Below, one piece after another: positions 2,166 to 56,425 of a DNA stretch of 64,000 nucleotides. The notes below the pieces were generated by a model. That model was given only the letters and a program-made list of their open reading frames with translations, was not told the DNA's origin and ran no database searches. Made by a program: the position numbers and the translations under genes. The DNA comes from Novosphingobium sp. BW1 (GTDB lineage Bacteria; Pseudomonadota; Alphaproteobacteria; Sphingomonadales; Sphingomonadaceae). How positions within the stretch are numbered: the stretch's first letter is position 1; every line of letters begins with the position of its first letter. Where the stretch lies: contig NZ_VIRF01000063.1 of assembly GCF_008107685.1 (NCBI RefSeq), positions 124,001 through 188,000 of the forward strand, given 5' to 3'.

Positions 2166-2300
2166 GGTGATTTCCCGGGGTGATCGCCCTCGGGCTCCCC
2201 AAACTGCCTGGCTCACCTTCCGTGCGCGCCCTTGGCTGACAAAGGCGAGGTCGCCCATTTCGGGGGGCAAGGGGCGATGGCCCCTTGAATCAAAACCTTC
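2166..2300 (-). repeat. Palindromic intergenic element, copy 1 of 6 (reverse orientation)
   Basis: Read on the minus strand, it starts with the hairpin AAGGGGC-CATC-GCCCCTT, continues with a central imperfect hairpin (CCTCGCCTT pairing with AAGGTGAG), and ends with GGGGAGCCCGAGGGCGAT and a weaker terminal hairpin. The same layout recurs at 6111, 39283, 42176, 43502 and 56285. This copy sits between the stops of the bactofilin gene (+) and trcR (-), and is followed by a separate strong terminator. Weak reading frames across it are not real genes. Confidence 0.88.
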
Positions 2301-2317
2301 TTTCTTCGTGCTACCAA

Positions 2318-2353
2318 CGAAAAAGGCCCGCACTTTCGTACGGGCCTTTTTCG
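2318..2353. terminator. Bidirectional intrinsic terminator
   Basis: Perfect 13-base inverted repeat CGAAAAAGGCCCG / CGGGCCTTTTTCG with a 10-base loop. It has T-runs on both strands, so it can end transcription from both the bactofilin gene and the leftward trcR gene. Confidence 0.88.
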
Positions 2354-2379
2354 TATGCGCATCTGCGGAGGGGGCGGGC

Positions 2380-3084
2380 TTACTCGCCGCGTTCCTCGGC
2401 TTCGGCGGCGCGCTTGGCCTGGAGCCAGGCGGCGGCTTCGGCTTCCTGCGCGGCCTCGTTGGCGGCCTTGGCGGCCGCGTCACGTTCGGCGCGCAGTTCC
2501 TCGATGAGGGCCTGGCGGTCATCGACGAGGCGTTCGTCGGTCGCGCCTTCGTTTTCTATACCGGCCTTCTTGGCGGCCTTGAAGACCATCGCGTCCAGCT
2601 CGCGCTGCGAGCACAGGCCCAGCGTGACCGGGTCCTTGGGCGTGATGTTGGCGATGTTCCAGTGCGAACGGTCGCGGATCGCGGCGATGGTGTTGCGGGT
2701 CGTGCCAATCAGTTTGCCGACCTGCGCGTCCGAGACCTCGGGGTGGTTGCGCAGAATCCAGGCAATGCCGTCGGGCTTGTCCTGGCGCTTGGACACTGGC
2801 GTATAGCGCGGGCCCTTGGTGCGGCTCACGGTCACCGGTGCGCGGTGCATGCGCAGTCGGTATTCCGGATTCGCCTGACCCTTCTCGATCTCTTCCATCG
2901 TCAGCTCGCCCGCGCGCACGGGGTCGCGGCCGGTGTACTTGGCCGAGGCCAGATCGTCGGCCATTGCCTGGACTTCAAGCATGTGCAGACCGCAGAAATC
3001 CGCAATCTGTTCAAACGAGAGCGCCGTGTTGTCGACCAGCCAGGAGGCGGTCGCGTGCGGCATCAGCGGAGTGGGCTGGCTCAT
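2380..3084 (-). CDS. trcR: TrcR-family (DUF1013) cell-cycle transcriptional regulator
   Basis: A 234-residue protein of the alphaproteobacterial DUF1013/TrcR family, which is thought to act with RNA polymerase in transcription control. Visible family features: the N-terminal PLMPHATASWLVDNTALSF segment, ADFCGLHMLEVQAMAD, the YRLRMHRAPVTV stretch, and a helix-turn-helix-like region at about 115-140 (VSDAQVGKLIGTTRNTIAAI). The C-terminal 60 residues are Ala/Glu/Arg-rich and probably a coiled coil. No DNA target is inferable here. It is transcribed alone, after the DnaJ-class gene, with about 225 bases between them. Confidence 0.88.
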   Translation of the reverse strand: MSQPTPLMPHATASWLVDNTALSFEQIADFCGLHMLEVQAMADDLASAKYTGRDPVRAGELTMEEIEKGQANPEYRLRMHRAPVTVSRTKGPRYTPVSKRQDKPDGIAWILRNHPEVSDAQVGKLIGTTRNTIAAIRDRSHWNIANITPKDPVTLGLCSQRELDAMVFKAAKKAGIENEGATDERLVDDRQALIEELRAERDAAAKAANEAAQEAEAAAWLQAKRAAEAEERGE

Positions 3085-3234
3085 GTCTCTATCTCCGGCG
3101 GAAACAATAAGGGCCGCCCCTTCGCGGAGCGGCCGTACCGGCCCGACTTAGGTGAGTTTTGTGCGTTGGGCAAGGACTAGCGCCCGATTTGCGCGGAAAA
3201 TTGGTGCTGGAGTGTCCGGATCGGAGCGTCAGGT

Positions 3235-53838: not shown

Positions 53839-53921
53839 GATGCAAAAGTGCTTAGGGATTGCCGGTCGGTTGCGCAATGGTCGCAAGCCCACCTTGTTGC
53901 CGGGCGCGGAGGAAATTTGCG

Positions 53922-54638
53922 ATGAGCGGATCGGAAGGCTACGCCGGTGTCGAGGGCGCCGAGGCGGTGCCGGAAAGCTGGCGCGCCGCACTTGCCCCGG
54001 TGCTGGAAGCCCCTGAGGCGCGCCGTCTGGGCGCTTGGCTGCAAGCCGAGGAGGAGGGGGGCAAGACCGTCTATCCCCCGCGCGGTAGCCGCTTGCGCGC
54101 GCTGGAACTGACCCCGTTTGATGCGGTCAAGGTCGTGATCCTGGGGCAGGACCCCTATCACGGGCCGGGACAGGCGCACGGGCTGGCCTTTTCGGTGCAG
54201 AAGGGCGTGCGTGTGCCCCCCTCGCTGGGCAACATCTACAAGGAACTGGCCAGTGACTGCGGTGTGACAGCGCCCGGTCATGGCAATCTGGAGGGCTGGG
54301 CACGCCAGGGTGTGCTGCTCCTCAACAACGCGCTGACGGTCGAGGCGGGACAGGCCGGTTCGCACCAGAAGCGGGGCTGGGAGGCGATCACCGATGCCGC
54401 CGTGGCCGCGGTCGCGGCGCGCCGCGAACCGTGCGTCTTCCTGCTCTGGGGCTCGCATGCGCAGAAGAAGGCGCAGCGGGTGCCGGGCCTGATGCAAAGT
54501 CAGCACCTCATCCTTCAGGCGCCGCATCCCAGTCCGCTTTCGGCACACCGCGGGTTCTTCGGATGCGGACATTTCAGCCGTACCAACGCCTTCTTGAAAA
54601 AGAACGGGCGCACACGGATCGATTGGGGCTGTGTCTGA
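53922..54638 (+). CDS. ung: Uracil-DNA glycosylase
   Basis: Removes uracil from DNA, starting base excision repair. The 238-residue family 1 enzyme has VVILGQDPYHGPGQAHGLAFSV (catalytic Asp in GQDPYH), VPPSLGNIYKEL, LLLNNALTVEAGQAGSHQKRGWE, FLLWGSHAQKKA and the HPSPLSAHRGFFGCGHFSRTN loop. All are kept. GGAGGA precedes ATG 53922. Confidence 0.96.
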   Translation: MSGSEGYAGVEGAEAVPESWRAALAPVLEAPEARRLGAWLQAEEEGGKTVYPPRGSRLRALELTPFDAVKVVILGQDPYHGPGQAHGLAFSVQKGVRVPPSLGNIYKELASDCGVTAPGHGNLEGWARQGVLLLNNALTVEAGQAGSHQKRGWEAITDAAVAAVAARREPCVFLLWGSHAQKKAQRVPGLMQSQHLILQAPHPSPLSAHRGFFGCGHFSRTNAFLKKNGRTRIDWGCV

Positions 54639-54738
54639 TTGACGCAGGCGATCAGGCTGATCGCAAGCCTTGCGGCAACCACTTGGGCGCCTGACGCATT
54701 CTTCTTGGCAATCCCCCAATCGCCGAGAGGACCTATCC

Positions 54739-56283
54739 ATGGCCGACAAGCCCACCCTGACCACCAGCGCCGGTGCCCCTGTTCCCTCCAATGAGAACTC
54801 GCTGACCGCGGGCACCCGCGGGCCGGTGCTGATGCAGGATTACCAACTCTTGGAAAAGCTCGCCCACCAGAACCGCGAGCGAATCCCCGAGCGCACCGTC
54901 CACGCCAAGGGCTGGGGCCTGCAGGGTACCTTCACGGTAACCAACGACATCACGAAGTACACCTGCGCGAAGATGTTTTCCGAGGTGGGCAAGCAGACCG
55001 AGGTGCTTTCGCGCTGGTCGACCGTCGCGGGCGAAGCAGGCGCAGCCGATGCCGAGCGCGACGTGCGCGGTTTCTCCCTCAAGTTCTACACCGAAGAGGG
55101 CAACTGGGACATGGTGGGCAACAACACGCCTGTCTTCTTCGTGCGCGATGCTTACAAGTTCCCCGACTTCATCCACACGCAGAAGCGCCATCCGCGCACG
55201 AACCTGCGCAGCCCGGAGGCCATGTTCGACTTCTGGGCCGCCCAGCCCGAAAGCGTGCACCAGGTGACGATCCTGATGTCGGACCGCGGCATTCCGAAGA
55301 ACCCGATGCACATGAACGGCTATGGCAGCCATACCTTCTCGATGTGGAACGCGGCCGGTGAGCGTTTCTGGGTGAAGTTTCACTTCAAGACCCAGCAGGG
55401 CCACAAGTTCTACACCAATGCCGAGGCCGAGAAGCTGATCGGCAAGACGCGCGAATCCTATCAGGAGGACCTCTACAACGCGGTCGAGAAGGGCGAGTAC
55501 CCCAAGTGGACGCTCTACATCCAGGTCATGCCCGAGGAGGACGCGCTCAAGACGCCCTACAACCCCTTCGACCTCACCAAGGTCTGGCCTCACGGCGACT
55601 ATCCACTGATCGAGGTGGGCGTCCTGGAGATGAACCAGAACCCGGACAACTATTTCCAGATGGTCGAGAACGCGGCGTTCAGCCCCTCGAATATCGTGCC
55701 GGGTATATCCTTCTCGCCGGACAAGATGCTGCAGGCGCGCGTCTTCTCCTATGCCGATGCGCACCGCTATCGCCTGGGTACGCATTACGAAGCGCTGCCC
55801 GCAAACGCAGCCAAGGCCGCCAAGGTGAATCACTACCACAAGGACGGCGCGATGCGCTTCTTCACCAACGACTTCGGCAACCCGGATGCCTACTACGAGC
55901 CTAATCAGTACGATGGGCCTGTTGCCAATGCGGGTGCGCAGGAGCCACCGCTGCGTATCGATGGCGACATGGACCGCTATGGCAACCCGCAGGAGATGGA
56001 CGATTTCACGCAGCCGCGTGCACTCTATGAAATGTTCACAGACGAGCAGAAGCAGCGCCTCTACACCAACTACGCCCAGGCCATGGGGCCGTGCTCGACG
56101 GGCGTAAAGGAGCGCTGGTACGCCGTCCTTGAAAAGGTCCACCCCGACTACGCGGCGGGCGTGCGCAAGGCCTGCGAGGAACTCGACAGCGACGTGAACG
56201 CGGTGCCGATCACGAGCGAGACCGCAACCGACGCCGAAGAGGTAAATACGGCGCCCGATACGGTGAAGGCGCATACGGAGTAA
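54739..56283 (+). CDS. Monofunctional heme catalase
   Basis: Splits hydrogen peroxide into water and oxygen. The 514-residue protein is a clade 3, small-subunit type by length. Catalytic residues are visible: RTVHAKGWG (active His), FFVRDAYKFPDFIHTQK, distal Asn region, and the heme Tyr in RVFSYADAHRYRLG. It has no signal peptide, so it is cytoplasmic. No OxyR gene is adjacent. The palindromic repeat starts just after the stop codon. Confidence 0.96.
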   Translation: MADKPTLTTSAGAPVPSNENSLTAGTRGPVLMQDYQLLEKLAHQNRERIPERTVHAKGWGLQGTFTVTNDITKYTCAKMFSEVGKQTEVLSRWSTVAGEAGAADAERDVRGFSLKFYTEEGNWDMVGNNTPVFFVRDAYKFPDFIHTQKRHPRTNLRSPEAMFDFWAAQPESVHQVTILMSDRGIPKNPMHMNGYGSHTFSMWNAAGERFWVKFHFKTQQGHKFYTNAEAEKLIGKTRESYQEDLYNAVEKGEYPKWTLYIQVMPEEDALKTPYNPFDLTKVWPHGDYPLIEVGVLEMNQNPDNYFQMVENAAFSPSNIVPGISFSPDKMLQARVFSYADAHRYRLGTHYEALPANAAKAAKVNHYHKDGAMRFFTNDFGNPDAYYEPNQYDGPVANAGAQEPPLRIDGDMDRYGNPQEMDDFTQPRALYEMFTDEQKQRLYTNYAQAMGPCSTGVKERWYAVLEKVHPDYAAGVRKACEELDSDVNAVPITSETATDAEEVNTAPDTVKAHTE

Positions 56284-56284
56284 G

Positions 56285-56425
56285 CAGGACGTCCTTTTTC
56301 AAGGGGCCGTAGCCCCTTGACCCCCGAACCGGCGAGCTCACCTTCCTCGGCCAAAGTGGTGCGACTAAGGTGAGCTTGATCGTTCGGGGAGCCCAAGGGC
56401 CATGGCCCTCGGATCTATTTTCTTC
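56285..56425 (+). repeat. Palindromic intergenic element, copy 6 of 6
   Basis: Starts right after the catalase stop with AGGACGTCCTTTTTCAAGG and fills nearly all of the 150-base gap to the chemoreceptor stop. The central stem AGCTCACCTT / AAGGTGAGCT is perfect here and differs from copy 3 by a matched G-C for C-G change. The right end is GGGGAGCCCAAGGGCCATGGCCCTCGG. There is no other terminator. Confidence 0.9.

What the first reader, a model, noticed from the sequence alone, without database searches (positions are those of the whole stretch)
2166..56425. Six-copy palindromic element found only between convergent genes
A 135-140 base element occurs at 2166-2300, 6111-6243, 39283-39417, 42176-42313, 43502-43640 and 56285-56425, four in one orientation and two in the other. 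All six lie between the stop codons of facing genes, and no copy lies in a divergent or tandem gap. The window has eleven convergent junctions; three have 14 bases or less between genes, or overlap. Of the other eight, six carry the element and two carry standard terminators. At copies 2, 4 and 6 there is no other clear terminator. This points to a mobile or once-mobile element that is selected for, or tolerated as, a bidirectional transcription boundary. I know of no described family that fits, though absence from my knowledge is not proof of novelty.
Basis: partly seen in the sequence, partly recalled or inferred. Interest (0 to 1): 0.87.

Follow-up and report, generated by a model that had tools for sequence, protein, structure and literature searches.

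The report
Paired hairpins behind stop codons
Some 145 copies of a short two-hairpin DNA repeat were found in this bacterial genome, mostly just behind stop codons and most often where two genes run into each other; between related species the hairpins change slowly while the DNA around them drifts, so the repeat likely marks and protects the ends of messages.

Summary
The six copies are real, but 'only between convergent genes' fails genome-wide. A covariance-model search lists 145 distinct places in the window's own genome: 81 convergent, 50 tandem, 8 divergent, 4 at contig edges, 2 inside ORF calls. The bias is strong all the same: 81 of 181 convergent gaps in the stretches held, against 50 of 681 tandem and 8 of 168 divergent. 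Tandem copies sit a median 21 nt behind the upstream stop, so this is a gene-3'-end repeat. The core (about 120 nt) is two inverted hairpins sharing GGGCCATCGCCC, joined by a fast-changing palindromic spacer and framed by a purine and a pyrimidine tract. In a congener, 36 of 37 mapped places keep a copy and the 37th keeps one hairpin; between these orthologues hairpins differ at 8.8% of sites, spacer 26.9%, near flanks 23.3%, fourfold codon sites 19.2%. The hairpins thus look constrained where they stand. No RAYT transposase, GTAG or CGTC tag, or repeatable target-site duplication was found. Placement behind stops and between convergent genes is already described for REPs; the nearest described layout is Br-REP1 of Bradyrhizobium. 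Verdict: a new, untagged REP-like family, probably a strand-symmetric mRNA 3'-end element; termination and decay were not measured.

The parts
2170..2291 (-). copy 1, core (two hairpins and palindromic spacer)
   Evidence: 104.1 bits; 4 nt behind the stop at 2165
6113..6234 (+). copy 2, core
   Evidence: 85 bits; 11 nt behind the stop at 6101
39292..39411 (+). copy 3, core; folds well on both strands (z -5.3 and -3.7)
   Evidence: 110.8 bits
42187..42307 (+). copy 4, core
   Evidence: 98.3 bits
43503..43623 (-). copy 5, core
   Evidence: 109.4 bits
56296..56416 (+). copy 6, core; folds well on both strands (z -5.1 and -5.5)
   Evidence: 114.3 bits
2318..2353 (.). ordinary bidirectional terminator beside copy 1
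39427..39468 (.). ordinary bidirectional terminator beside copy 3
42098..42127 (+). terminator-like GC hairpin beside copy 4 (short T run; not counted by my rule)
25047..25081 (.). element-free convergent junction; in congener G043 the matching region carries two element halves split by a transposase gene and another ORF

Best explanation
Most copies of this strand-symmetric pair of inverted hairpins lie just behind stop codons, and the pair most likely works in RNA as a 3'-end element that is predicted to stop 3'-to-5' exonucleases and help end transcription for the upstream gene, and for both genes where they converge. Shown here: the position, the two-hairpin layout with purine and pyrimidine tracts, inheritance in place between two congeners, and slow change of hairpin stems and loops. 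Inferred: that the element is transcribed, that the hairpins act in RNA, and that conserved loop bases mean a sequence-specific partner. Not measured: termination, RNA ends, RNA stability.
For: Placement: 81 of 181 convergent, 50 of 681 tandem and 8 of 168 divergent gaps carry it; in the 50 tandem gaps the median distance is 21 nt from the upstream stop and 126.5 nt from the downstream start, with orientation 26 same and 24 opposite. 99 of 132 convergent and tandem rows have a facing stop within 30 nt. It repeats in G002 (14 convergent, 7 tandem, 0 divergent, 1 edge of 22; 4 further weak or partial places left out) and in 400 contiguous kb of G043 (27 of 69, 13 of 262, 4 of 68 gaps; tandem medians 19 and 102 nt). 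Constraint in place: 31 orthologous pairs G000/G043, columns away from gaps: hairpins 93 of 1056 differ, spacer 479 of 1783, flanks 1-15 nt 148 of 634; fourfold sites 5819 of 30382; hairpin rate below spacer rate in 30 of 31 copies. When the spacer is lost one hairpin with its flanks stays, in two traced cases: C95:1907 in G000 and the G043 orthologue of C56:35644. 60 of 80 element-bearing convergent gaps show no other terminator by my rule. Flanks: purines up to 0.93 on the left and pyrimidines up to 0.93 on the right, against 0.49 purine behind other stops. Small signs of kept pairing: three of five covariation measures are reached by only 9-14 of 500 shuffles; inner-stem pairs kept 0.328 against 0.292 shuffled (8 of 500).
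Against: In the outer hairpins compensatory change does not exceed shuffles between orthologues (pairs kept 0.343 against 0.331, 108 of 500), and over the whole structure the number of pairs with a double change is not raised (11 against 11.3). So pairing alone is not shown to be what is kept. Of the six window copies, 1, 4 and 5 fold little or no better than shuffles (z -0.3 to -2.6). Own-copy flank complementarity is no better than between copies. In gaps with 50 nt or more outside the element, ordinary terminators are not significantly rarer than without it (20 of 40 against 31 of 48, p 0.20). Distal hairpins of tandem copies tend to be less conserved than stop-proximal ones, but only at p 0.05-0.10. 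33 of 132 convergent and tandem rows have no facing stop within 30 nt, and eight divergent copies have no obvious 3'-end role.
Confidence: 0.5

Rival explanations
1. It is a non-autonomous mobile repeat (REPIN- or MITE-like) that spread earlier and is only tolerated at 3' ends.
For: High copy number in G000, G043 and G074 and dozens of matches in G002, while 162 of the 195 genus genomes searched have no match at E 1e-6 (capped, strict filters); G000 and G002 differ in the consensus of the first hairpin loop (CCATCG against TTAACA), also at three of five shared sites; one G002 copy stands where G000 has only an ordinary terminator. Direct flank similarity was slightly raised in one test (z 2.2) and a 3-nt duplication in another (9 against 2.9 of 123).
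Against: 36 of 37 places inherited in place between G000 and G043; no pair of copies more alike than the shuffled maximum (0.851 against 0.857), although pair identities spread wider than in shuffles (0.054 against 0.038); no Y1 transposase found in the draft genome; the duplication signal did not repeat; hairpins constrained after arrival.
Confidence: 0.2
2. It acts as DNA: a sequence-specific site for gyrase or another chromosome protein that relieves supercoiling where transcription units meet.
For: Convergent bias; hairpin stems and loops both conserved as sequence, with little compensatory change; gyrase binding and convergent supercoiling are cited for E. coli REPs (PMC1525189, passages).
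Against: A third of copies are tandem and mostly close behind one stop; no binding evidence.
Confidence: 0.15
3. It is a classical bidirectional intrinsic terminator that happens to be repeated.
For: Purine-hairpin-pyrimidine frame reads the same on both strands; intrinsic terminators between convergent genes are over-represented in Zymomonas (PMC7566282, passages; its kinship to sphingomonads is recalled).
Against: Only 13 and 14 of 123 copies pass a hairpin-plus-T-run rule on the two strands; the tract is mixed C/T; loops and stem sequence are conserved beyond need.
Confidence: 0.12

Closest known systems
REP elements, GTAG and CGTC superfamilies, head-head dimers (PMC3733652: abstract, passages and the first part of the discussion seen)
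   Same: Short inverted hairpin pairs, some with a structured spacer, many copies, intergenic, convergent and tandem, close behind stop codons; CGTC REPs lack a dedicated transposase and occur in S. wittichii, S. chlorophenolicum and N. aromaticivorans.
   Different: No GTAG or CGTC tag beyond chance (6 and 6 of 123 copies within 12 nt of either hairpin, read towards the hairpin; GACG, the opposite reading of CGTC, in 17); longer conserved unit; purine and pyrimidine frame.
Br-REP1 with flanking palindromes, Bradyrhizobium (PMC5082802, section 15 read)
   Same: Three stem-loops, repeated, in overlapping 3'-UTRs of convergent genes; RNA data there suggest small RNAs on both strands.
   Different: Sequence unrelated (best match to its consensus no better than shuffled); in Br-REP1 the central stem is the one repeated at about 200 sites, here the outer two are the conserved ones.
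E. coli BIME / REP
   Same: Inverted REP pairs at gene 3' ends; roles in RNA stability, attenuation and gyrase binding are cited (PMC5082802, PMC1525189 passages).
   Different: GTAG-tagged and linked to RAYT transposases there (PMC3733652 passages); neither found here.
ERIC and RIME1 (recalled; no paper on them was read)
   Same: Roughly 110-130 bp intergenic palindromes.
   Different: Sequence not compared here.

Membership tests
GTAG REP / BIME | GTAG tag at the foot of the hairpin | tested here: not met
   6 of 123 copies, about 8.6 expected
GTAG REP / BIME | RAYT (Y1 transposase, PF01797) in the genome | tested here: not met
   0 matches in G000, a 134-contig draft; the control search rings in 5 of 14 known genomes
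CGTC REP | CGTC tag and A-T first stem pairs | tested here: not met
   CGTC in 6 of 123 copies (GACG in 17); stems start C-G
REP-like repeats in the broad sense | repeated extragenic palindromes, inverted pairs, behind coding regions | tested here: met
MITE | target-site duplication | tested here: not met
   A weak 3-nt signal in G000 (9 against 2.9 of 123, best of 131 tests) did not reappear among the best offsets of an anchored test (n 50 G000, 63 G043, 29 G074, only 4 G002)
MITE | terminal inverted repeats | tested here: met
   Outer hairpins are inverted copies of GGGCCATCGCCC
Intrinsic terminator | hairpin followed at once by a T run | tested here: not met
   13 and 14 of 123 on the two strands
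Intrinsic terminator | ends transcription | not testable with these tools
   needs RNA data
Br-REP1 | consensus CCGGAATCTCGAGATTCCGG | tested here: not met
   mean 10.7 of 20, shuffled 10.8
Rfam families | match above the gathering score | tested here: not met
   Searches (whole window; copy 6 only, lax threshold): best 26.3 bits to a microRNA precursor whose gathering score is 90

The most novel reading that the evidence does not exclude
A dedicated, sequence-specific 3'-end system: an unknown factor reads the GGGCCATCGCCC hairpins, one at each end, so that both converging messages end in the same protected structure; the element has taken over about 40% of convergent junctions from ordinary terminators, and copies change in step with the factor of each species.
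Probability: 0.15. Interest if true: 0.78.

Novelty: new variant of a known kind. Interest (0 to 1): 0.5.

Why it matters
Whether REP-like repeats are useful or merely tolerated is still argued. Here copies stand at the same junctions in species about 92% alike near the elements, with hairpins changing at less than half the fourfold-site rate and a spacer that serves as a built-in neutral control. That makes the question testable junction by junction, and gives clean deletion targets at convergent genes with and without an ordinary terminator.

Tried and rejected
Extended outer stem formed by the purine and pyrimidine flanks: own-copy complementarity equals cross-copy, rejected. Insertion with a target duplication: weak signals did not repeat. 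A single-empty-site argument for mobility: the only 'absent' site in G043 proved to hold one hairpin. Autonomous parent element: the roughly 2-kb insert in a split G043 copy encodes a DDE_3 transposase and a DUF695/RraB protein, read as an ordinary insertion. RNA-structure-only selection: little excess of compensatory change, none in the outer hairpins. My first two terminator scans missed obvious terminators and were replaced. RNAalifold on the flank-bearing alignment gave six pairs only. Literature: eight answered searches, seen as listings; none listed a Novosphingobium family of this kind, in a library that lacks most subscription papers.

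Full report
Observation. The six copies exist as described. Aligned in one orientation they share a core of about 120 nt: a first hairpin CAAGGGG-CCATCG-CCCCTTG, CCCC, a palindromic spacer with CCTCACC and GGTGAGG, GGGG, and a second hairpin CCGAGGGC-GATG-GCCCTCGG. 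The second hairpin is an inverted version of the first (shared 12-mer GGGCCATCGCCC). Left of the core lies a purine tract and right of it a pyrimidine tract, so the unit reads purine, hairpin, hairpin, pyrimidine on either strand. Folded as RNA, copies 3 and 6 beat shuffles clearly on both strands (z -3.7 to -5.5), copy 2 less (z -2.9 and -4.2), copies 1, 4 and 5 little or not (z -0.3 to -2.6).

Census. A covariance model of 51 copies was run on the window's own genome (G000, 4.46 Mb, 134 contigs). The search scores at most 150 candidates and listed 150 rows; without opposite-strand doubles 146 rows remain, two of which are halves of one longer variant, so 145 places. This may undercount the family, while the weakest rows (from 31 bits) may be false. 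I fetched stretches around them (1.098 Mb with the window) and called genes with a hexamer-based caller of my own (1116 genes). Types of the 146 rows: 82 convergent (81 places), 50 tandem, 8 divergent, 4 contig edges, 2 inside called ORFs; at 70 bits or more 65, 38, 7, 2 and 1. Of all gaps in these stretches 81 of 181 convergent, 50 of 681 tandem and 8 of 168 divergent carry it. These stretches were chosen for holding elements, so the rates are inflated; 400 contiguous kb of congener G043 give 27 of 69, 13 of 262 and 4 of 68 (45 elements after merging neighbouring hits and dropping those under 40 bits), and 22 copies of G002 give 14, 7 and 0, with 1 at an edge (4 weak or partial places left out). 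In tandem gaps the copy hugs the upstream stop (median 21 nt; start 126.5 nt away) in either orientation (26 and 24). Of 132 convergent and tandem rows 99 have a facing stop within 30 nt; 39 of 82 convergent rows have both.

Taxon and spread. Of the 12 best named matches to the window's murA, 8 are Novosphingobium; the genome itself is unnamed, so the genus is inferred. In 195 genomes of the genus, own included, 33 have a match at E 1e-6 (capped at 18 rows a genome, strict filters), five of them with 15 rows or more (G000, G002, G043, G073, G074). Of 397 genomes drawn from the family, 96 genera, two match, G000 and one more of the genus (cap 9). G043 and G074 give 150 rows each. More distant versions with the same layout and other stem sequences occur in N. 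resinovorum (L110), a MAG (L127), G001 and G006, and longer versions with a third, central hairpin occur in G043 and G000.

Inheritance and constraint. Of the G000 places whose two flanks both map to the 400 kb of G043 (38 rows, 37 places), 36 have a copy at the same junction and one has a single hairpin. Of 30 best G043 loci and 30 best G074 loci, 28 and 30 align to held G000 stretches (longest pieces 78-94% identical, median 92), 22 and 27 in one alignment straight through the element. For 31 orthologous pairs (60 bits or more, good flanks) hairpins differ at 93 of 1056 positions, the spacer at 479 of 1783, flanks 1-15 nt at 148 of 634, fourfold sites of 145 genes at 5819 of 30382; 30 of 31 copies have a lower hairpin than spacer rate. 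Across 123 copies of G000 no pair is more alike than the column-shuffled maximum (0.851 against 0.857), though pair identities spread wider than in shuffles (0.054 against 0.038), so some structure or uneven decay exists; hairpin columns diverge 3-15% from consensus except three loop positions at 20-30%, spacer columns 6-58%. Constraint is on sequence, loops included; in the outer hairpins compensatory changes do not exceed shuffles, in the whole structure three of five measures show a small excess (the long-hairpin alternative scores much the same), one of them resting on a C-G to U-A change closing the first loop in five copies. A homogenising process cannot be excluded, and the differing first-loop consensus in G002, seen also at three of five shared sites, hints at one or at a changing partner.

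Relation to terminators. Ordinary terminators (rule, gaps of 20-600 nt) lie outside the element in 20 of 80 element-bearing convergent gaps, against 31 of 64 element-free ones; where 50 nt or more is available the difference is not significant (20 of 40 against 31 of 48). At the murA-side junction (copy 4) the relative N. lindaniclasticum has an ordinary terminator and no element. Two traced copies with spacer loss keep one hairpin. Classical hairpin-plus-T-run signals are rare inside the element (13 and 14 of 123). I therefore favour a 3'-end hairpin that stops exonucleases and helps ending, over a plain intrinsic terminator; this step is inference.

Mobility. No Y1 transposase in the draft genome, no repeatable target duplication, no young pairs of copies. 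One G002 copy stands where G000 has none, and 5 of 6 G002 copies with both neighbours in held G000 stretches are shared (21 tested; the held stretches favour sharing). The family must have spread once (inference), but no current movement is visible.

Comparison. Di Nocera and others (PMC3733652; abstract, passages and the first part of the discussion seen) describe GTAG and CGTC REPs lying between convergent and tandem genes, in S. wittichii convergent ones mostly within 20 bp of both 3' ends, often as head-head dimers, CGTC ones without a transposase. The positional pattern is thus known. The present family lacks both tags. Br-REP1 (PMC5082802, section 15) has three stem-loops in overlapping 3'-UTRs of convergent genes, but another sequence. 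RepRanger (PMC12306157, term counts and passages) has no word beginning 'sphingo' or 'Novosphingobium' in its main text. Novelty: a new, untagged variant of a known kind, with an unusually clear sign of constraint in place.

Noticed in passing
window 22707-22786: Rfam suhB/mmgR small RNA match (44.8 bits, cut-off 41).
   Followed up: no
window 33993-34064: tRNA by Rfam.
   Followed up: no
window 25190-25860: SDR-like remnant that appears broken; in G043 the matching region holds two halves of the element around a DDE_3 transposase and a DUF695/RraB gene.
   Followed up: partly
G043:C1:1417091-1417718 and G074:C3:21550-21839: Tandem copies of the element with a 169-bp period in both species (four and two listed; not checked whether the same site); the G000 stretch aligned to the G043 array is shorter.
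   Followed up: no
G043:C1 2539900, 2543620, 2591910, 2599690, 2608500, 2764140; G000 C56:9893-10107: Longer variant with a third, central hairpin GAGGGGC..GCCCCTC between the outer hairpins.
   Followed up: partly
L110 4810-4889: CGTC-type REP-like palindrome in N. resinovorum beside galU, another repeat family in the same genus.
   Followed up: no
G000 C101:107285, C58:12530, C50:19210, C95:1907: Single hairpins with the same kind of flanks at convergent junctions; C95 is a spacer deletion relative to G043 and G074, the others were not traced.
   Followed up: partly
G000 C50:16931-17050: A high-scoring copy (124.6 bits) inside a long called ORF; gene call not checked.
   Followed up: no
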